Positions 2,512 to 63,270 of a stretch of 64,000 nt of DNA are shown here, in pieces. The stretch is from Pseudodesulfovibrio portus (GTDB lineage Bacteria; Desulfobacterota; Desulfovibrionia; Desulfovibrionales; Desulfovibrionaceae). The stretch spans positions 1,428,501 to 1,492,500 of the forward strand of contig NZ_AP026708.1 of the NCBI RefSeq assembly GCF_026000375.1, given 5' to 3'. Positions within the stretch are counted from its first letter, which is position 1. Each line of letters begins with the position of its first letter. The notes under the pieces are model-generated. The model saw nothing but the letters and a program-made list of their open reading frames with translations, searched no databases and was not told where the DNA came from. The position numbers were made by a program, and so were the translations under genes.

Positions 2512-2551
2512 GGCTTTCGAGAGTGGTGCAGATGTGCCGCTATCGGAAGCC
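2512..2551. repeat. Palindromic stop-codon element, internally deleted copy (copy F)
   Basis: A 40-bp imperfect palindrome whose arms (GGCTTTCGAGAGTGG and CCGCTATCGGAAGCC) closely match the outer arms of the full copy at 10154-10275. The whole interior is missing, and the TGCAGATGTG in the middle is the repeat that flanks the interior in the full copy. It sits downstream of the ribB terminator. Confidence 0.75.
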
Positions 2552-2561
2552 GCCGAGCAAG

Positions 2562-2595
2562 AAAAAGGCCCCTCCGGGCGAAAACCGGAGGGGCC
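2562..2595 (-). terminator. Intrinsic terminator of ribB
   Basis: A perfect 11-bp stem GGCCCCTCCGG at 2567-2577 pairs with 2585-2595, with a T5 run on the minus strand (A run at 2562-2566). Confidence 0.9.
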
Positions 2596-2637
2596 TACTA
2601 TATCGAAGGAGAAGCCGTATTTTGTTTTTGGCGTCGG

Positions 2638-3393
2638 TTACCAGCGGCTGTTGGAGCGCGACATGGCGCTGGTGCCTCTGGTGGCGCCGGCGGGCATCAT
2701 GCCCGGGGCCTTGGGGGCGTCTTCCACGGGCTTGAGGTTTCCGTCCTCGTCTTCGCGGTGTTCGCGGTAGGCGATGATGTCCTGGACGGTGCACACGGCC
2801 ATTTCGTTCTTGATGGCAAAGCCCACGATCTCGTGCAGCTTGGCCATGGTGCCGTCGGGGTTGGTCAGCTCGCAGAGCACGCCGCAGGGGTTGAGTCCGG
2901 CAAGCCGCATGAGGTCCACGGTGGCCTCGGTGTGGCCGCCGCGTTCGAGCACGCCGCCGGAGCGGGCGCAGAGCGGGAACACGTGGCCGGGCCGGGCCAG
3001 GTCGCCGGGCTTGGCGTCCGGGGCGATGGCCGCCTTGACCGTTGTCACCCGGTCGGCTGCGGACACGCCGGTGGTCACGCCCTGGGCGGCCTCGATGGAC
3101 ACCGTGAACGCGGTCCCGAACTGGCTCTCGTTTTCCTCCACCATCATGGGGAGGTCGAGCTGCAGGGCCTTTTCTTCGCTCATGCACAGGCAGACGATGC
3201 CGCTGCATTCGCGGATGAGCATGGCCATTTGCTCATTGGTCAGTGTTTCGGCGGCGAAGATGAGGTCGCCCTCGTTTTCGCGATTCGCGTCGTCGGTGAC
3301 CAGGATGCCCCGGCCCTTGCGCAACAAGGCGATCGCGTTTTCGACCCGCGAGATCGGGCCGCCGAACTGTTTGAGGATTGGCTGATCCATCAT
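2638..3393 (-). CDS. ribB: 3,4-dihydroxy-2-butanone 4-phosphate synthase
   Basis: A 251-residue protein that makes the four-carbon riboflavin precursor from ribulose 5-phosphate. The N-terminal metal/substrate motif [10 protein letters not shown] is at ~34-43, and [21 protein letters not shown] carries later active-site residues. The ATG at 3393 is preferred because GGAGG lies nine bases upstream; a TTG sits directly before it. The protein is ~35 residues longer than a stand-alone E. coli RibB; the tail after AYREHRED is acidic/proline-rich and looks like a linker, but no GTP cyclohydrolase II (RibA) domain follows. Transcription is under an FMN riboswitch. Confidence 0.95.
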
Positions 3394-3536
3394 CAAAGAA
3401 ACCCTCCAAGGAGGTTAGGGATGAATCAGGGCGCGTAGACAGAGTGGCGGGCACGGCTTGAGCGCCGGTGTTCGCCGGAACGCATGCGCACCATGAGGCG
3501 AGGACCGCCGGGATGCGCAAACGCAGAACTGCCTCA

Positions 3537-3674
3537 TTCTCTTCCATCCGGACTCTTACCGTCGGCCCCGGAATCACACCGGATCTGCTGACCCTCCCAC
3601 CTGAGGGAGGCGCTCGCGGGCTTCCCGGAAAGCCGGATCACCGCCGGTGGGGAATTGCACCCCGCCCTGAGAAC
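3537..3674 (-). promoter_or_regulatory. FMN riboswitch (RFN element) upstream of ribB
   Basis: On the minus strand this carries the RFN landmarks: TCAGGGCGGGGTGCAATTCC, then CCCCACCGGCGGT, a variable arm, and GACGGTAAGAGTCCGGATGG near the 3' end. It ends ~145 bases before the ribB start. Known RFN elements bind FMN and repress riboflavin genes. No strong terminator follows the aptamer, so control of translation initiation is more likely than attenuation (inference). Confidence 0.95.
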
Positions 3675-3684
3675 AAGTGCGGAA

Positions 3685-3713
3685 ACATTCCTGCAAATTT
3701 CCGGCCGTGTCAA
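3685..3713 (-). promoter_or_regulatory. Probable sigma70 promoter for the ribB leader
   Basis: On the minus strand a perfect TTGACA at 3713-3708 is followed after 17 bases by a weak -10 (GAATGT). This would start transcription a few bases before the riboswitch, which is the expected geometry. Confidence 0.5.
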
Positions 3714-3978
3714 CAAAAACCCGTCACAGCGAATCCGTTTCCGACCGCCCTCAAGCAACCCCGTTCCCAAGCCGGCACGTCTACTCCTCTCTTTCCCCGA
3801 ATCAAGGCTTGCAGGAGCGGGTCGAGTCCCAGGCGGACGGTTGGGGCTTTCCCGCAGCCGCATCCCGATACGGCGGGGCCGGACTCCGACCTTCCGACGA
3901 CGAAATCGGCCTGCTGTTGCAAGCCGACGCTGCCGTAGTTCTTGCCGCATAGGTCAAAAAGGAGTAAGCCCAATTCCC

Positions 3979-4335
3979 ATGCATGAAATGTCCATCGTCG
4001 AATCCATCCTCGGCATCCTGCGCGAAGAGATGGTCAAACATGACGGCAAGAGGCTCAAGAAGGTGACCATCAGAAACGGCCGCCTGGCCGGCGTGGTCAC
4101 CGAAGCCCTGGAGTTCGCATGGGAGGCGCTTATCCCCGGCGGCGAATTCGACGGAGCCGAACTGGAAGTGATCGAGGTGCCGGTCAAGGTGACCTGCGGC
4201 GAGTGCGGAGAGGAATTCTCGCCCGAGCACAATCGGTGCATGCCCTGCCCCAAGTGCGACGCCCTGCTCGGCCACAAGGTTCTCGAAGGTAAGGAACTGC
4301 TCATCGACTCCATTGAAGTGGATGACCAGCTATAG
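3979..4335 (+). CDS. hypA: Hydrogenase nickel incorporation protein HypA
   Basis: A 118-residue protein, the usual HypA length. It delivers nickel to [NiFe] hydrogenase precursors together with HypB. The start at 3979 gives the canonical N-terminus MHEMS, whose His2 is the nickel ligand. The zinc site is CGEC at 73-76 and CPKC at 90-93. AGGAG lies upstream. hypB follows 14 bases later, so the two form an operon. The ~265 bp between the ribB promoter and hypA holds no recognisable gene, and no sigma54 site was seen there. No hydrogenase structural genes lie in the window. Confidence 0.96.
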   Translation: MHEMSIVESILGILREEMVKHDGKRLKKVTIRNGRLAGVVTEALEFAWEALIPGGEFDGAELEVIEVPVKVTCGECGEEFSPEHNRCMPCPKCDALLGHKVLEGKELLIDSIEVDDQL

Positions 4336-4349
4336 CAAGGAGAGGAAAC

Positions 4350-5009
4350 ATGTCCCAGGAAGTCCCCATCGTCAGAAACGTGCTGGAAGCCAACGACCGT
4401 CTGTCCGATGAGTTGAACAAAAAATTTCGGGTCAAGAAGATCCTGTGCCTGAACCTCATGAGTTCTCCGGGCGCGGGCAAGACCACACTGCTTGAACGCA
4501 CCCTGACCGACCTCAAGGATGAGTTCAGGATGGCCGTCATCGAAGGCGACCTGCAGACCGACAACGACGCCCAGCGCGTGGCCGCCACCGGCGCCCAGGC
4601 CGTGCAGATCAACACCGAGGGCGGCTGCCACCTGGATTCCGGCATGGTCATGGACGCGCTCAAGTCCATCGACACCGAGGGGCTGGACATCCTGTTCGTG
4701 GAAAACGTGGGCAACCTTGTCTGCCCGGCCGAGTTCAACGTGGGCGAGGACTACAAGGTCACGCTCCTGTCCGTGGCCGAGGGCGACGACAAGCCCGAAA
4801 AGTACCCGTTCATGTTCCACATCTCCGCAGTCATGCTGCTGAACAAGGTGGACCTGCTGCCCTACGTGGACTTCGACCTGGACAAGGCCAAGGCCCACGC
4901 CACCAAGCTGAACAAGGACATCAAGGTCATGCCCATCTCCGCCCGCACCGGCGAGAACATGGAGGCGTGGTATGAGTGGCTGCGCGAGAAGCGGGCCGAG
5001 AAGCTGTAA
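4350..5009 (+). CDS. hypB: Hydrogenase/urease nickel incorporation GTPase HypB
   Basis: A 219-residue SIMIBI-class GTPase that works with HypA in nickel insertion. The Walker A motif SSPGAGKTT is at ~38-46, the metal-binding CH pair at 93-94 with Cys125, and the guanine-specificity NKVD at 165-168. It lacks the histidine-rich nickel-storage N-terminus found in some HypB proteins, so it is the non-storage type. It is second gene of the hypAB pair and is followed by a strong terminator. Confidence 0.97.
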   Translation: MSQEVPIVRNVLEANDRLSDELNKKFRVKKILCLNLMSSPGAGKTTLLERTLTDLKDEFRMAVIEGDLQTDNDAQRVAATGAQAVQINTEGGCHLDSGMVMDALKSIDTEGLDILFVENVGNLVCPAEFNVGEDYKVTLLSVAEGDDKPEKYPFMFHISAVMLLNKVDLLPYVDFDLDKAKAHATKLNKDIKVMPISARTGENMEAWYEWLREKRAEKL

Positions 5010-5035
5010 GCCGCTTCACCGCTTTTGAAGATTTG

Positions 5036-5074
5036 AAAGTCAGGCCGCCCTTGTGGGCGGCCTGACTTTTTTTT
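5036..5074 (+). terminator. Intrinsic terminator of hypAB
   Basis: A 15-bp stem AAAGTCAGGCCGCCC, loop TTGT and complement, followed by a T8 run. Confidence 0.95.
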
Positions 5075-5097
5075 GCGTGCGGAAGGAAGAAGCGGAG

Positions 5098-5693
5098 GCG
5101 CATTCGCGTTGTACGCTCTTCGTCCTCCTTACAACGTGTTCCGCCCCTCGGCGGCCCTATTTTTGGCTGGCGCCCCAAAAATAGGGGAAAAAGGGCGCTT
5201 TTGGGCTAGCTCGCGCTGCCAGGCCCAAGAGCCTGTAGGCGACTTTGCTGCCCGTCTGCAAACTTGCCTGCGGCAATGTCGACGGGCTGCGCAATTCGCC
5301 CGGAACAGGCTCTAGGACCTGCCAGCGAATTGCCGTCACTGCCGTTTGAACCTGCCATCTCCAGTAGGTGCACCTCTTGGTAGACGCACGCTCAATTAAT
5401 CATAGTATGCACCCGCCTTGATCGCGGCCTAGAAGCCGACTGCAAGGGACGGCGGCTCCCAAAATGCAGCCCGCCCCCCTGCCAGGGCCAACACCTCCCC
5501 ATACTTGCAACGCCAGCCATCCCCCACGGATGGGAGCCGTCCAGAGCTGATCGGATTCTTGCCGCGATCTTGGGGCGGCCAAGTTGGAAAAGCGCATTTT
5601 TTGCTTACTTTTTGGTGCGCCAGCCAAAAAGTCAGCCGCTGTAAAAGCGGAACACTCCAGAAGGAGAACGATTGCCGTCAAACGCGAATGCGC
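5098..5693. repeat. 596-bp gene-free fold-back element with inverted homologous ends
   Basis: The ends are a perfect 13-bp inverted repeat (GCGCATTCGCGTT at 5098-5110 and its complement at 5681-5693). Homology between the inverted ends continues for ~110 bp, including GTGTTCCGC, TTTTTGGCTGGCGC with a following CCAAAAA (a hairpin in each arm), and GCGCTTTT. Inside are two more nested palindromes: AGCCTGT/ACAGGCT enclosing GCCCGTC/GACGGGC (5228-5315), and GATCGCGGC/GCCGCGATC enclosing GGACGGCGGCTCCCA and its near-complement (5418-5568). No convincing ORF was found. It separates hypAB from the sigma54 regulator. It could be a non-autonomous mobile element or two hairpin repeats inserted head to head. 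Confidence 0.7.
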
Positions 5694-5774
5694 TAAAAAC
5701 CAAAATGGCGATCAAACTCGCATCGCGGGTTTGGAGCCCACAAAATAACCGGGAGAATTTTTCGCCCATTTTTC

Positions 5775-5808
5775 TTGGCAGCACATAAATAGACGCGTAC
5801 GCTGCCAA
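5775..5808. promoter_or_regulatory. Inverted repeat abutting the start of the sigma54 regulator
   Basis: TTGGCAGC at 5775-5782 and GCTGCCAA at 5801-5808 are separated by 18 bases and end two bases before the ATG at 5811. No Shine-Dalgarno lies between. It could be an autoregulatory operator or a leader hairpin covering the ribosome-binding region; both are inference. Confidence 0.45.
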
Positions 5809-5810
5809 TC

Positions 5811-7142
5811 ATGTCCTTCCCGAAAAACCTGCCCCTTGAAGACGTGTTCGCCTCCATCGCCGACGGGCTGTTCACCGTGGACGCCGACTGGAACGTCACC
5901 TACTTCAACGAGGCTGCCGAACGCATCACCGGCATCCCCGAGACCGAGGCCGTGGGCCGCAAGTGCTGGGACGTGTTCCGCTCCTCGCTGTGCGACGGGA
6001 ACTGCGCCATCTCCGCCTGCATGGACAGCGGCAAGCCCATCGTGAACAAGTCCATCTTCATCGTGCGCTCTGATGGCACCACCCTGCCGGTGTCCATCTC
6101 CGCCTCCACCCTGCGCGACGGCGACGGCAACATGGTCGGCGGCGTGGAGACCTTCCGCGACCTGACCGAAATCCACGCCACCCGGCGACAGGCCAAGGAC
6201 ATCTACCGGTTCGAAAACATCGTGGGCCGCAGCCCGGGCCTGGAAAAGATATTCGCCATCCTGCCGCGCATCAGCGACTCCGAGGCCACCACCCTGCTGC
6301 TGGGCGAATCAGGAACCGGCAAGGAGTTGTTCGCCCGGGCCATCCACAACCTGAGCCCGCGCAAGAACGGGCCGTTCATCGCCGTGAACTGCGGCGCCCT
6401 GCCCGAGACGCTGCTGGAATCCGAGCTGTTCGGCTACAAGGCGGGCGCGTTCACCGACGCGCGAAAGGACAAGCCGGGCCGGTTCCAGCTGGCCAACAGC
6501 GGCACCATCTTTCTGGACGAGATCGGGGATATGCCGGGCAAGCTCCAGGTCAAGCTGCTGCGCTTCCTCCAGGACAAGATGTACGAGCCGCTGGGCGGCG
6601 TGGAGCCGGTAAAGGCAGACGTGCGCGTGGTGGCGGCCACCAACCGCAACCTGGAACGGGCCGTGGCCGAAGGGTCCTTCCGCCAGGACCTGTTCTACCG
6701 CCTCAACGTGGTCACCCTGACCCTGCCGCCGCTCTCGGCCAGACAGGAGGACCTGCCGCTCCTGATCAGCCACTTCCTGGCCGAGTTCGAGGCCAGCCAG
6801 GGGAAGGGCATCCTGGGCGTGAGCGAGGACGCTCTCCAGGTGCTCATGCATCACGGCTACCCCGGAAACGTGCGCGAGCTGGAGAACATCCTGGAATACG
6901 CCTTCATCCTCTGCACGGGCGGCTTCATCCAGGTGGAACACCTGCCCGAATATCTCCAGCCCGGCCAGCCCGACCGGTCCGGCCCCGACCCCCTGCGCGG
7001 GACCATGGACGATATCAAGCGCCGGGCCGCCCGGCAGGCTGTGAAACGGAACAACGGCAAGAAAATGGCCGCCTGCCGCGAGCTCTCCATCACCAAGGAC
7101 ACCCTCCGCCGACTGCTCACCCCTCCCGGAAAGGGCAAATAA
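5811..7142 (+). CDS. Sigma54-dependent transcriptional activator with PAS sensor
   Basis: A 443-residue bacterial enhancer-binding protein. An N-terminal PAS domain (~8-122) carries four cysteines (52, 61, 65, 70) in a CDGNC-type cluster that could hold a redox cofactor. The AAA+ domain follows, with Walker A GESGTGKE (165-172), LDEIGDMP as Walker B, and a Fis-type helix-turn-helix at ~395-440. The sigma54-contact loop reads GAFTDA (212-217) instead of the usual GAFTGA. There is no response-regulator receiver domain. Its position beside a NifX-like/Mrp pair matches the regulator of the Desulfovibrio orange-protein (ORP) operons, so it probably activates the sigma54 promoter just downstream. 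The signal sensed is unknown. Confidence 0.9.
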   Translation: MSFPKNLPLEDVFASIADGLFTVDADWNVTYFNEAAERITGIPETEAVGRKCWDVFRSSLCDGNCAISACMDSGKPIVNKSIFIVRSDGTTLPVSISASTLRDGDGNMVGGVETFRDLTEIHATRRQAKDIYRFENIVGRSPGLEKIFAILPRISDSEATTLLLGESGTGKELFARAIHNLSPRKNGPFIAVNCGALPETLLESELFGYKAGAFTDARKDKPGRFQLANSGTIFLDEIGDMPGKLQVKLLRFLQDKMYEPLGGVEPVKADVRVVAATNRNLERAVAEGSFRQDLFYRLNVVTLTLPPLSARQEDLPLLISHFLAEFEASQGKGILGVSEDALQVLMHHGYPGNVRELENILEYAFILCTGGFIQVEHLPEYLQPGQPDRSGPDPLRGTMDDIKRRAARQAVKRNNGKKMAACRELSITKDTLRRLLTPPGKGK

Positions 7143-7232
7143 TTAGCCCAAACCTGTCTGTACCGGGCTTATTTTTAGCCACAAATCCGTATGCCGAAAT
7201 CATAACTTATTGATTTTCAATGCTATATGAGA

Positions 7233-7248
7233 TGGCACGGTCTGTGCT
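7233..7248 (+). promoter_or_regulatory. Sigma54 (-24/-12) promoter
   Basis: TGGCACG then GTGCT: GG at 7234-7235 and GC at 7246-7247 are separated by exactly 10 bases, with one mismatch to TTGC in the -12 box. Transcription would start near 7259, 37 bases before the NifX-like gene. A dyad GAAATCA-N8-TGATTTTC at 7196-7218 could be an activator site, although it is closer than usual. Confidence 0.8.
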
Positions 7249-7295
7249 TGATAGCGTGTATCCGGCTCGGGTCCGCCGTATGTGGAGTAGATGAA

Positions 7296-7646
7296 ATGAA
7301 AGCAGATACCGACCAGCTCATCTGCCTGGCATGTTACCGGAACCGACTGGCCTCCGTTTGCGAGAATGCTGACGGCTACAAGTTATTTGAAATACGTGAC
7401 GACAAATTTTACCCCGCAGGCCACCTATCCCTTCCCTCAAAGGACCCTATGGACAGGACATCCGCCATATTGGCCTGCGGGGTAACTGCTTTTCTTTGCG
7501 GCGCCATCCGCAACCAGACCCGGCAGACCCTTGAAGCGGGCGGCGTCACGGTCCTGCCCTGGCTCACCGGCTCCGAGACCCAGGTCCTCGACGGCTACAT
7601 GCGCCACGCGCTGGACGACCTGGCCATGCCGGGCACCCGCGTTTGA
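7296..7646 (+). CDS. NifX/NifB-fold protein, orange-protein (ORP)-like
   Basis: A 116-residue protein of the dinitrogenase iron-molybdenum-cofactor family. The segment LASVCENADGYKLFEI and the later CGAIRNQTRQTLEAGGVTVLP match the core of NifX/NafY-like domains. The start at 7296 is chosen because GGAG lies eight bases upstream. It follows a sigma54 promoter and precedes mrp. In Desulfovibrio vulgaris the orp1 operon contains a NifX-fold protein (ORP, carrying a Mo-Cu cluster) with an Mrp/ParA-family ATPase next to a sigma54 regulator. Assignment to ORP itself, rather than another NifX-like member, is inference from context. Confidence 0.75.
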   Translation: MKADTDQLICLACYRNRLASVCENADGYKLFEIRDDKFYPAGHLSLPSKDPMDRTSAILACGVTAFLCGAIRNQTRQTLEAGGVTVLPWLTGSETQVLDGYMRHALDDLAMPGTRV

Positions 7647-7757
7647 CAAATCCGAAACCATGCTTAATTAGCGTTGGCCCGGCTGGGAACCGATCCCGGA
7701 CGGGCGTTGCACGATACTTCAAAGGCGGTCACCGACCGCCGTTTTCAGGAGAATACC

Positions 7758-8633
7758 ATGAGCGGTTGTGAAGGCTGCGCGTCCGCAGCACCCGACGGTT
7801 CCTGCTCCAGCGAGAGCGGGTGCACCAATCCCGATGAGAAACTGAACAAGACCCTGTCCCGCATCAAGCACAAGATCGTGGTCATGTCCGGCAAGGGCGG
7901 CGTGGGCAAGTCCACCGTGGCCGCCAACATCGCCGTGGCCCTGTCCCTGGCCGGCAAGAAGGTCGGCCTGCTCGACGTGGACGTGCACGGCCCCAGCGTA
8001 CCGCGCCTCCTCTCCCTCAAGGGCAAGCAGCCCCATATGGGTGATCAGGTCATGGAGCCTGTTCCCTGGTCCAAGAACCTGTCCGTCATGTCCCTGGGCT
8101 TCATGCTCCCGGATGACCGCCAGGCCGTTATCTGGCGCGGCCCGGTCAAGATGGGGCTGATCAAGCAGTTCGTGGAAGACGTCATGTGGGGCGACCTGGA
8201 CTACCTGATCGTGGACTGTCCCCCCGGCACCGGCGACGAGCCGCTGTCCACCCTGCAGACGCTGGGACCCACAGCCATCGGCGTCATCGTCACCACCCCC
8301 CAGGGCGTGGCCATCGACGACGTGCGCCGCTCCGTGTCCTTCGTGGGCGAGGTGGGCAACCGCGTGCTCGGCATCGTGGAAAACATGTCCGGGTTCGCCT
8401 GTCCCAACTGCGGCACGGTGCACGACATCTTCAAGTCCGGCGGCGGCGAGGAGCTTGCCAAGGAAGCGGGCGTCCGGTTCCTGGGCCGCATCCCCCTCGA
8501 CCCTGAGGTGGCCACCTCCGGCGACGAGGGCTACCCGTTCATGAAGGTCCACCGCGAGACCGTCACGGGCAAGGCCTTCGAGCAGGTCATCGAACCCATG
8601 CTCAATCTTCCGGACCCGCCGAAAGCAGATTAG
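7758..8633 (+). CDS. mrp: Mrp/NBP35-family iron-sulfur carrier ATPase
   Basis: A 291-residue P-loop protein. The start at 7758 has AGGAG seven bases upstream. The N-terminus is cysteine-rich (Cys4, 7, 16, 22), as in NBP35-type scaffolds. The deviant Walker A SGKGGVGKST spans ~44-53, and the paired CPNC at 215-218 is the bridging Fe-S cluster site. Such proteins assemble or transfer Fe-S (or Mo-Cu) clusters. It is the second gene after the sigma54 promoter, and a strong terminator follows, so the ORP-like gene and mrp form a two-gene unit. Confidence 0.92.
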   Translation: MSGCEGCASAAPDGSCSSESGCTNPDEKLNKTLSRIKHKIVVMSGKGGVGKSTVAANIAVALSLAGKKVGLLDVDVHGPSVPRLLSLKGKQPHMGDQVMEPVPWSKNLSVMSLGFMLPDDRQAVIWRGPVKMGLIKQFVEDVMWGDLDYLIVDCPPGTGDEPLSTLQTLGPTAIGVIVTTPQGVAIDDVRRSVSFVGEVGNRVLGIVENMSGFACPNCGTVHDIFKSGGGEELAKEAGVRFLGRIPLDPEVATSGDEGYPFMKVHRETVTGKAFEQVIEPMLNLPDPPKAD

Positions 8634-8690
8634 CGACTCGCGACAGCGGCACATCCGCACCGCTTCCATGAACCGCAACGCGTAGACATA

Positions 8691-8727
8691 AAAAAACCGC
8701 CCCGGCACCAGCCGGGGCGGTTTTTCT
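8691..8727. terminator. Bidirectional intrinsic terminator between mrp and the HD-GYP gene
   Basis: A 14-bp stem AAAACCGCCCCGGC, loop ACCA and complement, with A and T runs on the two sides. It lies between convergent genes. Confidence 0.9.
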
Positions 8728-8744
8728 GTTGGATGCAGTCGCGG

Positions 8745-9431: not shown

Positions 9432-9432
9432 G

Positions 9433-14530: not shown

Positions 14531-14532
14531 AA

Positions 14533-17706: not shown

Positions 17707-17846
17707 CAACAATAAGACTTCCGGAAGGTTCAGCAAGGTTCGAATGCAGGACGCAATGAAAAGAAACCAGCGGGAAGCGGATTCCCCTCACGGCAGTCTG
17801 CCTTTTTTGCGGCGGCGGCGCAATCGAGCATTGGGGGATCGCTTGG
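17707..17846. repeat. Possible degenerate palindromic element (copy I)
   Basis: Lies between mutL and the lptD stop codon. Degenerate versions of the two conserved boxes are visible (GAATGCAGGACGCAATG and GGCGGCGGCGCAATCG), in the right order and spacing. The outer stem is poor and the central palindrome is lost, so this may be a decayed copy or a coincidence. Confidence 0.3.
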
Positions 17847-24774: not shown

Positions 24775-24788
24775 CCCCCACCCAAGCA

Positions 24789-24822
24789 AAAAGCCCGGCC
24801 TCATCAGAGACCGGGCTTTTTA
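24789..24822. terminator. Bidirectional terminator
   Basis: Stem AAAAAGCCCGG, loop of 12 and complement, with A and T runs on both sides. It lies between the convergent nuclease-fold gene and roo. Confidence 0.85.
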
Positions 24823-24843
24823 TCTTTACTGACGAACAGCCAA

Positions 24844-24961
24844 GGCTGTTCAGAGTGGTTCGAGTGCAAGGCGCAAGGTCAAAGAGTACCGCAGCGTATC
24901 CCAATACGCGAGGACGCTCTTTGACCGCAGCAACGCAGCAATCGGGCCGCTATGGACAGCC
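24844..24961. repeat. Palindromic stop-codon element, copy A
   Basis: 118 bp. Outer arms GGCTGTTCAGAGTGG and CCGCTATGGACAGCC; box GTGCAAGGCGCAAG; perfect inner stem GGTCAAAGAG/CTCTTTGACC; central GCGTATCCCAATACGCGAGG; box CCGCAGCAACGCAGCA. It starts two bases after the roo stop codon. Confidence 0.9.
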
Positions 24962-49702: not shown

Positions 49703-49830
49703 GCCGTATTGTTCAGGTGGTATCGGCTGCAAGGCGCAAGTGAAATCCGGGGCCGTGGCGTATTCCGCATACGCGAGGGTCCGGATTTGCCGCAGCAACG
49801 CAGCAGACGGTGCCGCATGGACAATACGGC
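49703..49830. repeat. Palindromic stop-codon element, copy C
   Basis: 128 bp. Outer arms with a perfect GCCGTATTGT and its complement; box CTGCAAGGCGCAAG; inner stem AAATCCGG/CCGGATTT; central GCGTATTCCGCATACGCGAGG; box CCGCAGCAACGCAGCA. The arm at 49830 begins with the last base of the TAG stop of the glcD-like gene. Confidence 0.92.
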
Positions 49831-56204: not shown

Positions 56205-56220
56205 TCTTTCCCGGACAAAC

Positions 56221-56260: not shown

Positions 56261-56285
56261 ATTTGTATTTCAGCCGCGAAGCGCC

Positions 56286-56504
56286 CTAACTTCCGTACAG
56301 TGCGCCCTTGCGGAAGAAGCAGTAGAAGTCGCCCTGGTCGAACAGGCCGGGATGGCGCCGCTCGAAACGGGCGGCAATGCGGAACAGCGCCGGGCACCTG
56401 TGCCGGGCGAGCCCTCCGATGAAATGGCCGAGGCTCGCGCCCAGCGCCATCAAGGCGACCAGCAGCACCCCGTCCACAAAGAAAAGATCCAGTTCCATTT
56501 CCAT
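56286..56504 (-). CDS. Small membrane protein of unknown function
   Basis: 72 residues from the ATG at 56504, which has GGAGG eight bases upstream. One N-terminal membrane segment (VDGVLLVALMALGASLGHFIG) is followed by an Arg-rich cytosolic part with three cysteines/aromatics (FYCFFRKGALYGS). It is a single-gene unit convergent with rsmI. No family was recognised. Confidence 0.65.
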   Translation of the reverse strand: MEMELDLFFVDGVLLVALMALGASLGHFIGGLARHRCPALFRIAARFERRHPGLFDQGDFYCFFRKGALYGS

Positions 56505-56664
56505 AATACATACCTCCCGAATAAGAATCAGAACCAAAGCATAGGCTTTTCCGGCGGCGAATCAACCCCCCTTTTCAAATCCTTTTATTCACATGGCGTC
56601 GCCCCGGGTGTGCAGAATCCGGCCCGGCTTGACTTCTCCCCGCGACTGGCCCAAATAGCACCCC

Positions 56665-57639
56665 ATGAGCCTGAACGCCGCCTGCCGCAAAGTCCTTGAC
56701 GGGCGCGACCTCGCGGATTCCGAGATCCGATACCTCATCGAACTCCCCGACGAGCGCCTCGGCGAATTCCTGCCCCTCGCACACCGCATAAAAACGGCCC
56801 GCTTCACCAATGCGGTGGGATTGTGCGCCATCATCAACGCCAAGTCCGGGACCTGTTCCGAGGACTGCTCGTTCTGCGCCCAGTCGGGCCACCACCGGGG
56901 GGAAAGCCCGGTGTATCCGCTGCTGCCCGCCGACGACATCGAGAAGGCCGCCGTTGCCGCACAAGGTCACGGCGTGACCCGCTTCGGCATCGTGGCCAGC
57001 GGCAAGCTGGTGGGCGGCAGGGACCTGGACGGCTTTGCCGAATCCGTGCGCCGGGTGGCGGCCCTGGGCATGGCCCCGGACCTTTCGCCCGGCATCCTTG
57101 ACCGCTCGCAATTAAAAACATTGAAACATGCCGGGTTGAAGGGCTATCATCACAACCTGGAAACATCGGCCTCGTTCTTCCCCCGCATGTGCTCCACGCA
57201 CGCGTACGAGGAGGACGTGGCCGCGGTGCGCGCCGGGATCGACGCCGGGCTGCACGTCTGCTCCGGCGGCATCTTCGGCATCGGCGAATCGTGGGACGAC
57301 CGGGTGGAGCTGGCCCTGCTCCTGAGGGAACTGAAGGTACACTCCGTGCCCGTCAACTTCCTCCACCCCGTCCCGGGCACGCCGCTGGAAAACCGGCCCG
57401 TGCTCTCGCCGGAAGAAGCGCTGAAGATCGTGGCCCTGTTCCGCTTCCTGCTGCCGGACCGGCACCTGCGCATCTGCGGCGGGCGGCCCACCGTGTTCGG
57501 CGAAACGCGCAAAAGCGAACTGCTCACGTCCGGGGCCAGCGGCCTCATGGTCGGGGACTACCTGACCACGCGGGGCAACAGCGTCCGCTCGGACCTGGAT
57601 GACATCAACCGCGCCGGCCTGGTTCCGGCGGCATCATAA
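56665..57639 (+). CDS. bioB: Biotin synthase
   Basis: A 324-residue radical-SAM enzyme that inserts sulfur into dethiobiotin. The cluster motif CSEDCSFCAQS gives Cys64, 68 and 71. Further family blocks are GIVASGKL, YHHNLETS and RICGGR with the second-cluster arginine. It is directly followed by bioY. No other bio genes (A, D, F) are in the window, so the locus covers the last step and uptake only. The Shine-Dalgarno is weak. Confidence 0.96.
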   Translation: MSLNAACRKVLDGRDLADSEIRYLIELPDERLGEFLPLAHRIKTARFTNAVGLCAIINAKSGTCSEDCSFCAQSGHHRGESPVYPLLPADDIEKAAVAAQGHGVTRFGIVASGKLVGGRDLDGFAESVRRVAALGMAPDLSPGILDRSQLKTLKHAGLKGYHHNLETSASFFPRMCSTHAYEEDVAAVRAGIDAGLHVCSGGIFGIGESWDDRVELALLLRELKVHSVPVNFLHPVPGTPLENRPVLSPEEALKIVALFRFLLPDRHLRICGGRPTVFGETRKSELLTSGASGLMVGDYLTTRGNSVRSDLDDINRAGLVPAAS

Positions 57640-57642
57640 CGG

Positions 57643-58200
57643 ATGACAATGACCGAAAATTCAATGCTCGACCTGCACCGGCTCGTCTGGACCGCGCTCA
57701 TGGCCGCCCTCATCGGCGCAGGCGCATACCTCATCGTGCCCATAGGCCCCGTGCCCATCTCCATGCAGCCGCTGTTCATCTTCCTGGCCGGGTACGCCCT
57801 CGGCCCCCGGCACGGCGTCATGGCCATGGGCCTCTACCTGCTGGCCGGAACCGTAGGCCTGCCCGTTTTCGCGGGCGGCAAGTCCGGGCTCGGGCACCTG
57901 CTCGGCCCCACGGGCGGCTACCTGTTCGGCTTCCTGGCCTCCGCCCTGCTCTGCGGGCTGGCCCGGACCGGCAGGGACCTGATTCCCTGGACCAGGGGCA
58001 TCGTCTTCGGCATCATGGCCATTCTCGCCGCCTACGGCGCAGGGGCCGCCTGGCTCAAGTTCGCCCTTGATTTCTCCTGGGGCAAGGCCGTGGCCGTCGG
58101 CGTGGTCCCGTTCATCCCCTGGGACGCGGTCAAGATCTTCGTGGCCCTGGCCTGCTGCCGCTACCTGGCCCGCCACAACCTCCTGCCCGGACAGCGGTAG
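57643..58200 (+). CDS. bioY: Biotin transporter substrate-binding subunit BioY
   Basis: 185 residues with about six membrane segments. Family motifs GPVPISMQP, GLPVFAGGKSGLGHLLGPTGGYLFGF and the C-terminal PFIPWDAVK are all present. It binds biotin in the membrane as an S-component, alone or with an ECF module (BioMN), which is not encoded here. It begins three bases after bioB, so the operon couples synthesis and salvage. Confidence 0.95.
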   Translation: MTMTENSMLDLHRLVWTALMAALIGAGAYLIVPIGPVPISMQPLFIFLAGYALGPRHGVMAMGLYLLAGTVGLPVFAGGKSGLGHLLGPTGGYLFGFLASALLCGLARTGRDLIPWTRGIVFGIMAILAAYGAGAAWLKFALDFSWGKAVAVGVVPFIPWDAVKIFVALACCRYLARHNLLPGQR

Positions 58201-58215
58201 GCGGGAAGGCGCACC

Positions 58216-59007
58216 ATGAAAGACAGGGGATCGGCGCAGACGCGGACGGACAGCCGGGGCATGGCCTTCGTGCGCAGCTTCCTGCGCTGCTACCTGGTGG
58301 GCGCGGGATTCAACACGCGCGGCATGCAGAACATCGGGCTGATGTACGCCATGCAACCCGGCCTGCGCGCCATCCACAACGATCCCAAGATGCTCAGGAA
58401 CGCCCAGAAACGGTACGCCCGCCACTACCAGTCCCATCCGTTCTGGACGCCGTGTCTGGTGGGCATCCTCCTCAACGTCGAGGGGGCCATCAAGACGGGC
58501 CGGTTCCCGCCCAAGATGCTGGCCAAGGTCAAGGACACCATGGCCTACACCCTGTCCGCCATCGGCGACTCGGTGTTCGCGGGCAGCCTGCTCATCTTCT
58601 GGGCGCTGCTCACCATCTGCCTGATCCTGTCGGGCCTGCCCCGGACGGCCCTGGCCGTGGGCGTGGTCTTCCTGGCCGGGCTCCAGATATTTCGGGCCTA
58701 CACCTTCGCCGCAGGCGTCCGGGAAGGGTTCAAGCTGCTGGAGAAGCTCAAGCGGTGGGATCTCATCAACTGGGGCCGGAGGGTGAAATACGCCAACGCC
58801 GGGCTGCTCATCTGGCTGTGGACCCTGATCTGGCCGAATCCCCAGCAGTGGTGGGAGCTGCCCATCGGCGTGGGCGGGCTGCTGCTCTTCGCCCGCTTCG
58901 TGCGCACGGGAGTGCTCTCCCGCGTGCTGGCAGTGATCGTGTTCGTGATGCTGATAGACATTTTCCCCTGGGTGGAAGAAGCCGTCCGAAACGGATTTGG
59001 CTTGTGA
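58216..59007 (+). CDS. PTS mannose-family EIID component
   Basis: 263 residues of the mannose-type PTS EIID family: FLRCYLVGAGFNTRGMQNIGLMYAMQPGL, RHYQSHPFWTP and LVGILLNVEGAIKTG, then several membrane segments at the C-terminus. In other bacteria EIID works with EIIA, EIIB and EIIC, none of which lies in this window. HPr and EI follow. It probably belongs to a split or reduced PTS with a regulatory role. Confidence 0.9.
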   Translation: MKDRGSAQTRTDSRGMAFVRSFLRCYLVGAGFNTRGMQNIGLMYAMQPGLRAIHNDPKMLRNAQKRYARHYQSHPFWTPCLVGILLNVEGAIKTGRFPPKMLAKVKDTMAYTLSAIGDSVFAGSLLIFWALLTICLILSGLPRTALAVGVVFLAGLQIFRAYTFAAGVREGFKLLEKLKRWDLINWGRRVKYANAGLLIWLWTLIWPNPQQWWELPIGVGGLLLFARFVRTGVLSRVLAVIVFVMLIDIFPWVEEAVRNGFGL

Positions 59008-59056
59008 TTTTCCGCTCAATCATACATAACCACGGGTTGAAAAAGCAGGTTCGATA

Positions 59057-59359
59057 ATGACGGATGAAAGCACCACAGACATGGACAACGAAGATTACCT
59101 CTCCCGGAAGGTCATCGTCGCCTCCGACAACGGGCTGCATGCCCGTCCGGCGGGCAGGCTCGCCCAGGAGGCACAGACCTTTGAGGCCGACATCTCCCTG
59201 GTCCTGGACGACCAGGAGGCGGACGCCAAGTCCATACTCGACATCCTGACCCTGGCCGCCGGGCCGGGCAACGTCCTGGAACTGCGCGCCACCGGCGTGG
59301 ACGCCGAGGCCGCCCTGGAACGGCTGGAAGAACTGTTCGCCAACAAGCTCGAAGGATAA
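59057..59359 (+). CDS. ptsH: Phosphocarrier protein HPr
   Basis: 100 residues. The active-site motif GLHARPAG places the phospho-histidine at 28, and DAKSILDILTL provides the regulatory serine (59) for HPr kinase. The N-terminus is ~12 residues longer and acidic compared with standard HPr; an alternative start at Met9 (59081) would shorten it. It lies 49 bases after EIID and three bases before ptsI. Confidence 0.94.
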   Translation: MTDESTTDMDNEDYLSRKVIVASDNGLHARPAGRLAQEAQTFEADISLVLDDQEADAKSILDILTLAAGPGNVLELRATGVDAEAALERLEELFANKLEG

Positions 59360-59362
59360 TTC

Positions 59363-61147
59363 ATGGCCGACTCGATCATCACGGGCATACCGGTTGCCAC
59401 GGGCATCGCCATAGGCAAGGCCTTTTTCGTCAACCGAAGTCATGCCGCCAACCTGCCGAGACAGACCGTCGCGGCCCGGCTGGTCGGTGACGAGATCACG
59501 CGGCTGCACGAGGCCTTCGCCACCGTGGAGGGGGAACTCAAGACCATTCGCAAGACCCTTCCCGAAGAGCTGAAAAGCCACGGCTCCCTCATCGACACCC
59601 ACCTGATGATGCTCAGGGACCCCAAGCTCTCCGGGGCCGCCGAGGAATACATCAAGACGCTCGGCCTGAACGCGGCCTGGGCGCTGGAAAAGGCCGTGGC
59701 CGACCAGGAGCAGGCCTTCGGGGCCATCCGCGACCCCTACATCCGCGAGCGCATGCAGGACGTCCGCGTGGTGGCCGACAAGGTACAGACCAAGCTCATG
59801 GGCCTGGAAGTTGACATGACCGCCATCTCGGGCCGGGCCATCATCATGGCCCACGACCTGACCCCGGCGGACACCGTGGAGCTCCAGGCGGACAAGATCA
59901 TGGGCTTTGCCACGGTGCGCGGCGGCAAGACCTCCCACACCGGCATCATGGCCCGCTCACTGGCCATCCCGGCCCTGGTCGGCGTGGACGGGCTGGAGGA
60001 CAAGGTCCGCGACGGCGACCTGGTCGTCCTGGATGGGTTGACCGGCAAGATCGTGGTCAATCCCACCGAGTCGGAACTCGAGGATTACAACGAGCGGGCC
60101 GCCCTGTTCGAGGACTACTCGCGCAAGATCAAGCGCCAGTGCCACCTGCCCGCCGAGACCTTCGACGGCTCCCGGGTCGAGGTGCAGGCAAACATCGAGC
60201 TGGTGGAGGAAGTGGCCGCTGTCCTGGACAACGGCGGCGAGGGCGTGGGCCTCTACCGCACCGAGTACGCCTACCTGAACCGCAAGGAGCTGCCCTCCGA
60301 GGACGAGCTGGCCGACAAGTATATCGACCTGGCGTCCATCATGTCCCCGCGCAAGGTCGTCTTCCGCACCCTGGATCTGGGCAGCGACAAGTTCATCGCC
60401 TCCTTCGGCGAACTGCACGAGGCCAACCCGGCCATGGGGCTTCGGGCCATCCGTTTCTGCCTGAAGAACCCGCAATTGTTCAAGACCCAGCTCCGGGCCA
60501 TCCTGCGCGCCTCGGCCTACGGCAACGTGTCGCTCATGTTCCCCATGATCTCCGGGGTCAAGGAAATCAGGCAGGCCAAGGCGTGGCTCGCCCAGGCCAA
60601 GGCGGAGCTTCGCCGCGAGGGCGTGGAATACGACCCGAACATGCCGGTGGGCACCATGATCGAACTGCCCGCCGCCGTGATGATCGCCGAGTACCTGGCC
60701 CACGAGGTGGACTTCTTCTCCATCGGCACCAACGACCTGATCCAGTATTCGCTGGGCGTGGACCGGACCAACCGCCATGTCTCCTACCTGTACCAGCCGC
60801 TCCACCCGGCCACCCTCAGGGCCATCAAATTGGTGGTTGACGCGGCCCATCAGGCGGGCATAGAAGTATCGCTCTGCGGCGAGGTGGCGTCCGACCCGTT
60901 CTGCGTGCCCATCCTGCTCGGCATGGGCATCGACTCCATCTCCATGACCCCGCAGGCCATTCCCGGCATCAAGCGCATCATCCGGCAGACCAACATGCAC
61001 GACTGCCGCAAGCTGCTCAGGGACGTCCTGGAATGCCGCACGGTCAGCCGCATCAACAACCTGGTGATGGACAACATTTTCAAGCACTTCCCCGAGGAAG
61101 TCACATTCTTCTCGTCCCTTCTCGAAAACGACGAGTTGCCCTCATAA
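59363..61147 (+). CDS. ptsI: PTS enzyme I (phosphoenolpyruvate-protein phosphotransferase)
   Basis: 594 residues. Phospho-histidine His192 in GGKTSHTGIMAR, the PEP-binding domain with YRTEYAYLNR, and the active-site SLCGEVASDP near 503. It transfers phosphate from PEP to HPr. Length and domain order are standard. It is in the EIID-HPr-EI-smpB unit. Confidence 0.97.
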   Translation: MADSIITGIPVATGIAIGKAFFVNRSHAANLPRQTVAARLVGDEITRLHEAFATVEGELKTIRKTLPEELKSHGSLIDTHLMMLRDPKLSGAAEEYIKTLGLNAAWALEKAVADQEQAFGAIRDPYIRERMQDVRVVADKVQTKLMGLEVDMTAISGRAIIMAHDLTPADTVELQADKIMGFATVRGGKTSHTGIMARSLAIPALVGVDGLEDKVRDGDLVVLDGLTGKIVVNPTESELEDYNERAALFEDYSRKIKRQCHLPAETFDGSRVEVQANIELVEEVAAVLDNGGEGVGLYRTEYAYLNRKELPSEDELADKYIDLASIMSPRKVVFRTLDLGSDKFIASFGELHEANPAMGLRAIRFCLKNPQLFKTQLRAILRASAYGNVSLMFPMISGVKEIRQAKAWLAQAKAELRREGVEYDPNMPVGTMIELPAAVMIAEYLAHEVDFFSIGTNDLIQYSLGVDRTNRHVSYLYQPLHPATLRAIKLVVDAAHQAGIEVSLCGEVASDPFCVPILLGMGIDSISMTPQAIPGIKRIIRQTNMHDCRKLLRDVLECRTVSRINNLVMDNIFKHFPEEVTFFSSLLENDELPS

Positions 61148-61150
61148 TCC

Positions 61151-61633
61151 ATGGCAAAGAAAAAAAAGAAATCCACCTCCCCGAACACCATCGCGGTCAA
61201 CAAGCAGGCGCGGCGGCTGTACGACATCACCGAAGACCTCGAGGCGGGCATCTCGCTCAAGGGCAGCGAGGTCAAATCCCTGCGCGCCGGGCAGGTGTCC
61301 TTCAAGGACGGCTACGTCCGGTTCACGGCCGACGGCGAGGCGTATCTCGTGGGTGTGCACATCGCCCCCTACGACAAGACCGGGGTCTACGATCAGCACG
61401 ATCCTGAACGCCCCCGGCGGCTGCTCATGCACAAGCAGGAAATCGAGAACCTCCAGGCCAAGACCGAACAAAAGGGCCTGTCCGTGATCCCCATGCGCCT
61501 CTACTTCGCGCGCGGCAAGGTCAAGGTCCAGATCGGCCTGGGACGCGGCAAGAACGTCCACTCAAAGAAGCAGGACATCAAGGACCGCGATATCGCGCGC
61601 GACACCGCCCGGCAATTGGCGGACTACAAGTAA
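61151..61633 (+). CDS. smpB: SsrA-binding protein SmpB
   Basis: 160 residues. The beta-barrel tmRNA-binding core has [20 protein letters not shown] and [12 protein letters not shown]. The basic C-terminal tail ends [17 protein letters not shown]. It binds tmRNA in ribosome rescue. It follows ptsI by three bases. No tmRNA gene was recognised nearby. Confidence 0.97.
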
Positions 61634-61648
61634 GAATGTCTCCGACGG

Positions 61649-61710
61649 CCAGAGGGGGAACCTTTCGAGAAAGGTTCCCCCTCTGGACTCCCCCTCCAAA
61701 ACTTTTTATC
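61649..61710. repeat. GC-rich intergenic hairpin, family-2 repeat copy 2
   Basis: A perfect 18-bp stem CCAGAGGGGGAACCTTTC, GA and complement, followed by CTCCCCCTCCAAAACTTTTT. It matches the architecture of 2354-2445 and also serves as the likely terminator of the smpB operon. Confidence 0.8.
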
Positions 61711-61773
61711 GCCGCTTCGCGGGGTGGGTGATCGATGTTGGGTGCCTCGTGCTGCTGTGCGAGGCGGTCAGGC

Positions 61774-62034
61774 TCAGTAGTGGTAACGGCATTGGGCGAT
61801 GATCAGTGCGTCCGCCTCGCTGTCGTAGGCGTAGACAAGGCGGTGTTCCCTGTCGATGCGGCGGGACCAGTAGCCGGTGAGGTCGAAACGGAGCGGTTCG
61901 GGCTTGCCCCGCCCTTCAAAGGGAGTCCTCAGGGCGTCCCGGATGAGCAGATTGATGCGCTTGACCATCTTTTTGTCGGCCTTCTGCCAATACAGATAAT
62001 CTTCCCAACCGTGTTCGGTCCAGGTGAGGCGCAT
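61774..62034 (-). CDS. yoeB: YoeB-family mRNA-interferase toxin
   Basis: 86 residues. Matches YoeB/Txe: WTEHGWEDYLYWQKADKK, RINLLIRDALRTPFEGRGKPE, then SRRIDREHRLVY and the C-terminal YHY with the catalytic His/Tyr pair. It cleaves mRNA at the ribosome when freed from YefM. Its ATG overlaps the stop codon of the upstream antitoxin gene. Confidence 0.95.
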   Translation of the reverse strand: MRLTWTEHGWEDYLYWQKADKKMVKRINLLIRDALRTPFEGRGKPEPLRFDLTGYWSRRIDREHRLVYAYDSEADALIIAQCRYHY

Positions 62035-62291
62035 CAGTCCTCCAGGAGCGCGTGTTCTTCAAGCTCCCCCGCCTGGGCGGAACGGATTGACGCACGCAAC
62101 CGGTCGGCATTGGCCGGGCTGCCTAGCAGATACGCCGTTTCAGCGATCGAATTATAGTCTTCCAGGGACATCATGACCACAGACTTTGCCTTGCGCCGCG
62201 TGATGATCACGGGCTCATGCGAATCGCACACCTCGTCCATGGTGGACGCCAGGCGTTGACGAGCATCGGTGTAGGTGATGGCTTCGGGCAT
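62034..62291 (-). CDS. yefM: YefM-family antitoxin (Phd/YefM)
   Basis: 85 residues from the ATG at 62291 with AAGGAGG upstream. N-terminal TYTDARQRLASTMDEVCDSHEPVIITRR is the DNA-binding Phd/YefM fold, followed by VVMMSLEDYNSIAET and the toxin-binding acidic C-terminus. Its promoter region holds a TGTACA-type palindrome typical of yefM operators. It forms a self-contained toxin-antitoxin unit inserted between smpB and rnhB. Confidence 0.95.
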   Translation of the reverse strand: MPEAITYTDARQRLASTMDEVCDSHEPVIITRRKAKSVVMMSLEDYNSIAETAYLLGSPANADRLRASIRSAQAGELEEHALLED

Positions 62292-62305
62292 GTCGGCCTC
62301 CTTTT

Positions 62306-62325
62306 CTGTACAATAAATAGTACAG
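62306..62325 (-). promoter_or_regulatory. YefM operator and promoter
   Basis: CTGTAC-N8-GTACAG, an inverted repeat with TGTACA at its left half, just upstream of yefM. TATTTAT between the half-sites may be the -10 region, so binding would block transcription. Confidence 0.75.
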
Positions 62326-62382
62326 GTTTGCCCCATGGTCAAGGACGGGCCCTGCGCCCGATCACGGAAGGTCGTGCCGCGC

Positions 62383-63024
62383 CTAGAACAGGCTGGCCTG
62401 TTCCTGCGGCTTGTCTTCGGGTTTGACCTTTTTGAAGGTCAGGCGGTGGAGGCGGCAGGGGCCGAGTTTTCGGATGGCCTCGATGTGGGCCTTGGTGCCG
62501 TAGCCCATGTGCTGGGAGATGCCGTAGCCGGGGTAGCGTTTGGCCAGCTTGACCATGAGCCGGTCGCGGAAGGTCTTGGCCAGGACCGAGGCGGCGGAGA
62601 TGGCAGGGACCTTGCCGTCGCCCTTGATCACGTACTCCTGATGGATGTCGCGCCCCAGCGCGTAACCCGGAATGGTCTTGTCCCCGTCGATGCGCAGGAA
62701 TCTCGGCTCCGCCTTGAGGCAGCGCACGGCCCGCCCCATGGCCCGGAACGTGGCCTGCAAAATATTGACTTCGTCTATCTCCGGCGCCCAGGCCACACCC
62801 ACGGCCCAGGCCACTGCCTGCTCCCGGATCAGGGGATACAGCTCCTCGCGCCGCACGGCCGTCAACTGCTTGGAGTCGGTCAGCCCCGGCAGGTCGTACT
62901 CGACCGGCAGGATGCACGCCCCGGCCACCACGGGCCCGGCCAGACACCCCCGCCCGGCCTCGTCCACCCCGGCGATCTCCGTCGGGGAATACCCCCCTGC
63001 TTCGTACAAAACGACCTGGCTCAT
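62383..63024 (-). CDS. rnhB: Ribonuclease HII
   Basis: 213 residues from the ATG at 63024, which has GAGGAG ten bases upstream. The DEAGRG motif ([13 protein letters not shown], ~19-31) supplies the catalytic Asp/Glu pair, and ISAASVLAK(T)FRD and HMGYGTKAH are further family blocks. It removes RNA primers and misincorporated ribonucleotides. It lies downstream of rplS with a palindromic element in between. Confidence 0.96.
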
Positions 63025-63101
63025 CCGCTGATCTCCTCCGGCACTGTTTGTGCCCCAAAGCTCCACAAAAAGCCACCACGGCCATCCCCAAAACCCAGAA
63101 A

Positions 63102-63129
63102 GCCCGAAGTGTCAGTTGACACTTCGGGC
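63102..63129. terminator. Hairpin between rplS and rnhB
   Basis: Perfect 13-bp stem GCCCGAAGTGTCA, GT and complement. T tail is weak, so it may be a processing or partial terminator hairpin. Confidence 0.6.
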
Positions 63130-63146
63130 ATATATTCCATCACAGG

Positions 63147-63270
63147 AATTTTTCGGAGAAGTGGTGAGATGTGCCGATGCGAGGGGATTGCAGGACCGCC
63201 GCGTAGTCCTCCTACGCAAGGGTCTGCTATCGCCGAGCAGCGGTGCAGATCGCCGCTTCTCCGGAAAATT
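63147..63270. repeat. Palindromic stop-codon element, copy D
   Basis: 124 bp. Outer arms AATTTTTCGGAGAAGTGG and CCGCTTCTCCGGAAAATT; central GCGTAGTCCTCCTACGCAAGG; inner stem around GCAGGACC/GGTCTGC; the GCAGCGGTGCAGATCGCC box resembles the full boxes loosely. It starts inside the TAA stop codon of rplS. Confidence 0.88.

What the first reader, a model, noticed from the sequence alone, without database searches (positions are those of the whole stretch)
2512..63270. Dispersed palindromic elements placed at gene stop codons, with conserved boxes and copy-specific self-complementary stems
Six full copies (10154, 14352, 24844, 26798, 49703, 63147), one deleted copy (2512) and one doubtful copy (17707) share a central GCGTA-n-TACGCGAGG palindrome; the best copies also share GTGCAAGGCGCAAG and CCGCAGCAACGCAGCA boxes. 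The outer and inner stems are unrelated between copies but complementary within each copy. All full copies start 0-27 bp after the stop codon of a minus-strand gene. Seen directly: boxes, pairing, positions. Inference: the fold, not the sequence, is selected, as in attC sites or a structured RNA, or the arms are made by hairpin copying. The gene functions differ (phosphate, oxygen defence, ribosomal, lactate), so regulation of one pathway is unlikely.
Basis: partly seen in the sequence, partly recalled or inferred. Interest (0 to 1): 0.85.

Follow-up and report, generated by a model that had tools for sequence, protein, structure and literature searches.

The report
Mobile folded repeat beside stop codons
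A short folding DNA element, apparently spread by a jumping-gene mechanism through sulfate-reducing bacteria and relatives, is often found directly after genes and keeps its fold on one particular strand while its letters change, which suggests that at least one copy now does a job for the cell.

Summary
A covariance model finds 69 places in the 3.40-Mb genome and copies in 23 of 31 genomes, own included. Named hits are mainly Desulfovibrionaceae and Desulfobacterales.

The element is MITE-like. In G027 (same order, another family) 16 of 20 readable copies have an exact 4-bp direct repeat, mostly NTAN, at both ends. Its ends match those of IS1182-like DDE transposons with the same kind of target, up to 18 of 19 bases.

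It is not tied to RAYT transposases: PF01797 is absent here and from eight same-genus genomes with 27 to 68 copies.

Unusually, one strand is held to its fold: G.U exceeds A.C 315 to 72, and that strand folds better in 65 of 68 copies. At rplS, a copy shared by 8 species shows strong compensatory change with the same bias. That strand is antisense to the adjacent gene. Copies sit one way round at stop codons (37 to 4).

Its job is unknown; my best guess is a one-way hairpin at gene ends.

The parts
24842..24961 (+). full copy (canonical strand +), 2 nt from the stop of the minus-strand flavodiiron-protein gene (ODP + flavodoxin domains)
   Evidence: 121.4 bits; context; Pfam
49705..49826 (+). 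full copy, 3 nt from the stop of the minus-strand FAD-linked oxidase gene, between it and a downstream same-strand gene; absent at this place in G017, the genome with the most similar protein (85%)
   Evidence: 112.5 bits; ortholog comparison
63147..63268 (+). full copy directly after the stop of minus-strand rplS; present after rplS in 8 same-genus genomes with compensatory changes
   Evidence: 89.9 bits
14353..14473 (+). full copy in a long intergenic region, 296 nt from the stop of the alr gene
   Evidence: 73.5 bits
10152..10275 (+). full copy of subfamily II, 27 nt from the stop of the DUF47 (PhoU-like) gene
   Evidence: 65.8 bits
26801..26903 (+). shortened copy (short inner stem), abutting the stop of the desulfoferrodoxin gene
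   Evidence: 56.5 bits
   Evidence: 53.6 bits, E 1e-10
17722..17843 (+). degenerate copy, 3 nt from the stop of the minus-strand lptD gene
   Evidence: 30.5 bits, E 4e-5 in the window
2510..2551 (+). remnant: outer arms only, centre deleted
   Evidence: 26.9 bits, E 3e-4; sequence

Best explanation
The copies belong to one family of non-autonomous, MITE-like transposons. The intact form, seen in relative G027, is a leader of about 27 nt (CTGAGTGTTGAAAAAGTCC...) that resembles the left end of IS1182-like transposons, followed by a hairpin of about 124 nt whose last arm carries the right end. It inserts at a 4-bp NTAN-like site and duplicates it (shown by the direct repeats in G027; the transposase is inferred from the shared ends). 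In the few window-genome copies that I inspected the leader is degenerate or missing and no clear duplication remains; this was not tested systematically. The hairpin keeps its fold better on one strand, independently of the neighbouring gene (shown). Copies are found preferentially with their right end at a stop codon, so that the better-folding strand is antisense to that gene (shown); selective retention rather than directed insertion is inferred from weak evidence in G027. At least the rplS copy is kept in place with compensatory changes (shown). Function (inference, about 0.25): a one-way RNA hairpin that stops or marks transcripts running antisense or convergent into the gene end, while giving the gene's own mRNA a weaker 3' hairpin.
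For: 69 distinct places in the genome. In G027, 11 identical hairpins and 6 more within two edits among 30 loci, and exact 4-bp duplications in 16 of 20 readable copies of those 30. IS1182-like transposons (DUF772 + DDE_Tnp_1; 11 copies scored in G181) have NTAN-type targets and ends that match the element's ends 13-18 of 19 (G027) and 12-14 of 19 (G015). G.U 315 against A.C 72 in 67 own copies and 362 against 63 in 89 copies of other genera. Canonical strand folds better in 65 of 68 and 72 of 80 copies, and in all four copies at the stop of a same-strand gene, so the bias follows the element, not the gene. rplS orthologs: 96% paired against 85% in shuffles, 17 of 44 pairs with double changes against 8.7, covariation 0.36 against 0.16, G.U 40 against A.C 4. 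Right end at a stop 37 against left end 4.
Against: No full-length IS with the element's leader was found in G027 (exact 13-mer search), and no DUF772 transposase in the window genome or G027, so the mobilising enzyme is inferred. Of 7 IS copies read, 5 have identical 4-mers at both ends and 2 do not. No transcript of the canonical strand is known; I ran no promoter scan and saw no conserved promoter by eye. Outside G000 the stop-codon placement is weaker: 33 of 83 right-stop, 14 of 83 left-stop, 5 of them both. At rplS the element is degenerate in 3 and not recognised in 8 other same-genus genomes, so it is not essential, and in those three degenerate copies the strand bias is absent (gene-sense slightly better in 3 of 3). 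The consensus pairs were predicted on the canonical strand, which inflates the G.U count; the folding-energy test does not share this bias.
Confidence: 0.67

Rival explanations
1. Purely selfish MITE: the fold is needed only for its own spread (for example as a single-stranded or transposase-bound form) and resident copies do nothing; stop-codon placement is what is left after harmful insertions are lost and because stop codons supply TA targets.
For: Recent identical copies with target duplications; one-strand bias independent of the gene strand; stop-codon usage at elements (TAG/TAA 31 of 38) is close to that of all called genes (216 of 275); bias absent in the three degenerate rplS copies.
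Against: The rplS copy keeps 96% pairing with double changes in 8 species, and its wobbles are G.U rather than A.C 40 to 4: a dead copy should decay. A target with TA in the middle does not explain the orientation bias of 37 to 4.
Confidence: 0.3
2. Ordinary 3'-UTR mRNA hairpin, REP- or ERIC-like, acting on the gene's own transcript (protection from 3' exonucleases, or orientation-dependent mRNA stability).
For: Placement directly after stops, between the stop and the native terminator or between same-strand genes; the gene-sense strand also folds well (about -41 to -57 kcal/mol in the 8 rplS orthologs). For ERIC in Yersinia an orientation-dependent effect on upstream mRNA is reported (passages of the review PMC2229807).
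Against: In the mRNA the tolerated mismatches are A.C rather than G.U, and that strand is the weaker folder in 65 of 68 copies; selection on the mRNA strand should give the opposite.
Confidence: 0.25
3. REP elements moved by a RAYT (Y1) transposase.
For: Dispersed palindromes in intergenic regions with a strand-specific fold; some genomes have both (G005, G010, G012, G013, G017, G018).
Against: PF01797 is absent from G000 (68 copies) and from G001, G002, G003, G004, G007, G014, G015 and G016 (27 to 68 copies), while G011 has two Y1 matches and no element; 4-bp duplications and IS1182-like ends.
Confidence: 0.02
4. Palindrome maintained only by template-switch (quasi-palindrome) correction, without selection.
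For: Arms differ between copies yet pair within each.
Against: Correction would remove the conserved internal loops and give no excess of G.U over A.C on one strand; both persist.
Confidence: 0.05

Closest known systems
ERIC/IRU/RU-1, NEMIS/Correia, RUP and other bacterial MITEs
   Same: Small non-coding units of about 100-200 bp, in most families with terminal inverted repeats and target duplications with TA, long stem-loops, largely intergenic; RUP has ends like those of IS630-Spn1; the ERIC effect depends on orientation (passages of PMC2229807).
   Different: No blastn match of one query copy in 20,395 E. coli records at E 0.01; 4-bp NTAN-like duplication and IS1182-like ends; strong one-strand covariation, which the passages read do not mention for the other MITEs; found in Desulfobacterota.
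[quoted passage not shown] S1 legend and text passages)
   Same: Intergenic multicopy element with central palindrome GRCGTAGCGCTGCTACGCC; the copy at G000 367021 contains exactly that string.
REP/REPIN with RAYT
   Same: Dispersed intergenic palindromes with a strand-specific fold (REP part recalled).
   Different: No RAYT in nine element-rich genomes, longer unit, target duplication.
IS1182-family transposons
   Same: Ends and target type shared with the element; nearest NCBIfam model of the G181 transposase is IS1182 (E 1.6e-47, 162.5 bits, below its curated cut-off of 270).
   Different: Autonomous, open frame of 469 aa; the element is non-coding.
Integron attC sites
   Same: Long imperfect hairpin after a stop codon, better fold on the strand antisense to the gene (attC part recalled, no call).
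   Different: Single dispersed copies with direct duplications and transposon-like ends.

Membership tests
MITE (non-autonomous DNA transposon) | multiple near-identical dispersed non-coding copies | tested here: met
   G027: 11 identical and 6 more within two edits of 30 loci
MITE (non-autonomous DNA transposon) | target-site duplication | tested here: met
   exact 4-bp repeats in 16 of 20 G027 copies with readable left end, of 30; not tested systematically in the window genome
MITE (non-autonomous DNA transposon) | terminal inverted repeats shared with an autonomous element | tested here: met
   12-18 of 19 bases with ends of IS1182-like elements
MITE (non-autonomous DNA transposon) | mobilised by that transposase | not testable with these tools
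   needs a transposition assay
REP/RAYT | RAYT (Y1, PF01797) in genomes with the repeats | tested here: not met
   no match in the own genome and in eight other same-genus genomes with 27 to 68 copies; some other element-bearing genomes do have Y1 genes
ERIC | sequence homology to ERIC | tested here: not met
   no blastn match of one copy (L062) in the E. coli collection
intrinsic terminator | U-run directly after the hairpin | tested here: not met
   by eye (the terminator scan tool was not run): no U-run as a rule at the element's end; separate terminators remain further downstream in many loci
Rfam structured RNA | match to a curated family | tested here: not met
   window, both strands: only FMN at gathering score; up to E 5 only chance-level partial overlaps with or beside copies, such as E 1.9 at 24785-24858
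attC | recombination by an integron integrase | not tested
   no search for IntI was made; duplications at both ends argue against it
Geobacter 2009 short RNA family | shared sequence beyond the central palindrome | not testable with these tools

The most novel reading that the evidence does not exclude
A transposon-borne structured RNA: a MITE family that carries a highly conserved one-strand RNA fold and has been domesticated many times, at stop codons, as an antisense-strand RNA device (terminator, processing site or protein-binding RNA) guarding gene 3' ends, evolving in place by compensatory change.
Probability: 0.26. Interest if true: 0.8.

Novelty: new variant of a known kind. Interest (0 to 1): 0.62.

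Why it matters
Bacterial MITEs and REPs are usually treated as selfish or as mRNA hairpins (my general knowledge). Here dozens of copies in many genomes keep a fold on one strand, and one shared insertion shows covariation like that of a structured RNA. That makes a question directly testable: when does a mobile palindrome become a host RNA, and can the strand antisense to the neighbouring gene be the functional one?

Tried and rejected
Single-motif counting was useless. A first pattern with a guessed spacer found nothing. Rfam gave no family for the copies. The RAYT/REP idea was rejected. Replication-strand bias: orientation follows the neighbouring gene (56 of 68) more than the replication arm; skew of the stretches held suggests an origin near 1.9 Mb, but the two are confounded and I drew nothing from it. 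A special preference for TAG stops was not supported. A full IS with the element's leader inside G027 was sought and not found; a scan of the 326 loci then held, plus the window, for long elements with these ends gave one false lead, two inverted element copies in Fundidesulfovibrio. Plasmid, phage and E. coli collections held no match (one or two query copies). Literature searches listed no description of this family; only the Geobacter notes are a possible overlap.

Weak points: copy numbers are lower bounds, since only part of the first-look candidates is scored (150 of 589, 115 at most per genome). My gene caller is a simple codon-score program; starts are unreliable, stops less so. The window for a left stop (up to 45 nt, to allow for the leader) was wider than that for a right stop (15 nt). 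The G027 contrast (older copies more often at a right stop than recent ones) was chosen after seeing the data and depends on the cut: with at most 2 edits as recent, 2 of 17 against 7 of 13 (p 0.02); with at most 4 edits 4 of 21 against 5 of 9 (p 0.08); with at most 6, p 0.14. Dropped rows: 14 of 81 alignment rows (opposite-strand or overlapping duplicates); one of 69 places had no context; 6 of 89 hits left out (cut-off or partial); 9 of 89 in the folding test. On the second look I lowered two odds slightly because of the strand result in the degenerate rplS copies.
Full report
What was checked. The six full copies, the deleted copy and the doubtful copy exist. The short centre TACGCGAGG alone is no more frequent in the window than chance, but the two-part centre occurs 12 times exactly in the 3.40-Mb genome and 0 times in the reversed control, and CCGCAGCAACGCAGCA with up to two mismatches 16 times (control 2). 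A covariance model from 17 copies finds 71 matches in the genome at E 0.01; two are the opposite strand of a place already listed, leaving 69 places, 52 of them not in the seed. In the window it finds the six copies, a further one at 3804-3925, and weak matches at the doubtful and deleted copies.

Distribution. Of 31 genomes (own included) 23 have matches at E 1e-4: 0 to 114 per genome, with 115 candidates scored at most. Two of 18 same-genus relatives have none and two have only 2. A pattern scan of the species collection gave 95 stretches; the 80 listed loci are mainly Desulfovibrionaceae (Pseudodesulfovibrio, Fundidesulfovibrio, Desulfovibrio) and Desulfobacterales (Desulfospira, Desulfobacula, Desulfobacter), with a few bins named only Proteobacteria and one Alkaliphilus; no chance control was computed for this pattern. 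Viral contigs gave 3 with a shorter pattern; plasmids, phages and E. coli none by blastn with one or two query copies. Relatives also have tandem arrays.

Placement. With a simple gene caller, 68 of the 69 places could be given a context. In the orientation of the model, the right-hand gene points at the element in 56 of 68, and in 38 its stop lies within 15 nt of the right end (one of these also has a left stop); 4 are left-stop only (37 against 4, p 1e-7). In other genera 33 of 83 places are right-stop and 14 of 83 left-stop, 5 of them both (28 against 9, p 0.003). Native terminators often remain downstream of the element (by eye), and some copies follow a terminator instead of a stop.

Mobility. 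G027, from another family of the order, has 56 matches; of the 30 loci read, 11 hairpins are identical and 6 more lie within two edits. Beyond the modelled hairpin they share a leader, CTGAGTGTTGAAAAAGTCCTTATCCGG, and they are flanked by direct repeats of 4 bp (CTAG, ATAA, GTAA, TTAA and the like; also TTGG and TCAT): 16 exact of 20 readable, of 30 loci. A 13-mer of the leader occurs 28 times in G027 and never in the control; the eight without a hairpin match were fetched: seven are interrupted, partial or gap-containing variants of the element, one (L316) is a match inside a called gene, and none is an autonomous transposon. In G004 a decayed DUF772 transposase lies next to a matching end. 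A protein search of 347 genomes of the order found relatives in 18, with 11 scored copies in G181. Copies from G181 and G218 start with NTAN|CAGCGTGTTGAAAAACTCC; the 4-mers at the two ends are identical in 5 of the 7 read. Starts in other genomes are CTGAGTGTTGAAAAACTCC (G237), CTGACTGTTGAAAAACTCT (G011) and CTGCGTGTTGAAAAAGTCG (G053); with G181 they are 16 to 18 of 19 bases identical to the element's leader. The G181 protein has DUF772 and DDE_Tnp_1 domains and is nearest to the IS1182 model, below its curated cut-off. RAYT transposases (PF01797) are absent from the window genome and from eight same-genus genomes that hold 27 to 68 copies; other element-bearing genomes, such as G005, G012 and G018, do have Y1 matches.

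One strand keeps the fold. In all 20 copies first folded, the canonical strand is the more stable; over the genome 65 of 68, and in other genera 72 of 80. In consensus pairs G.U outnumbers A.C 315 to 72 (67 copies) and 362 to 63 (89 copies). The pairs were chosen on that strand, which inflates the ratio. The bias holds in all four copies that follow a same-strand gene, so it belongs to the element and not to its neighbour.

A shared copy. After the rplS stop the element is full in 8 same-genus genomes (own included), divergent in G007, and reduced to outer arms in G009 and G010; it was not recognised in the other 8, and in G003, G004 and G015 a native terminator follows the stop within a few dozen bases. 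The 8 share rplS-specific outer arms, so one insertion is the simplest reading. They are 61-83% identical to each other, yet 96% of cells pair (shuffles 85%), 17 of 44 pairs have changes on both sides (shuffles 8.7), and the covariation score is 0.36 (shuffles 0.16; slid versions at most 0.09). G.U 40 against A.C 4; leaving out three pairs whose commonest state is U.G, 23 against 4 (p 3e-4). The canonical strand is more stable in 8 of 8; in the divergent copy and the two remnants it is not (0 of 3). At the FAD-oxidase locus, by contrast, G017, with the most similar protein, has no element and the next start codon lies 2 nt after the stop, while G014 has an element directly after that stop.

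Reading. Origin as a MITE-like transposon with IS1182-like ends is well supported. Maintenance of a strand-specific fold in place is well supported for one locus and plausible for others. What the fold does is not known; because the strand is antisense to the adjacent gene and the element sits at the last possible place before the coding end, I favour a one-way hairpin acting on antisense or convergent transcripts, at about 0.25. An effect on the gene's own mRNA, as reported for ERIC (passages), remains possible.

Prior notice. [quoted passage not shown] one copy here contains that string (G000 367021). Whether the families are the same could not be tested. [quoted passage not shown] a second Pelobacter paper had nothing to the point in the passages shown. 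No other description was listed by my searches of the held library.

Noticed in passing
window 3532-3678, minus: FMN riboswitch (116 bits, E 2e-26).
   Followed up: no
G000 copies of subfamily II (for example 2412799, 2413026, 1723140): Some 40 to 80 nt downstream in gene sense many share a further box, ggtgacccgctgttgggtgcc..ggcacccaaatcgct, a second hairpin; 2412799 and 2413026 form a 227-bp tandem duplication.
   Followed up: partly
L064, L077, L081: Tandem arrays of the element in relatives (period about 125 in L064 and about 151 in L077).
   Followed up: no
L319, L321: Element copies in G027 with a second, partly palindromic insert nested in the inner arm.
   Followed up: no
L318, L323: Assembly gaps (runs of N) lie inside element copies, possibly because the hairpin hinders sequencing or assembly.
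   Followed up: no
L156: A match in a metagenome bin labelled Alkaliphilus (Bacillota by recall): contamination or transfer.
   Followed up: no
G000 1396047-1402299 (L099): Six copies within about 6 kb; 1396047 and 1396180 are adjacent with closely similar arms and inner stems.
   Followed up: no
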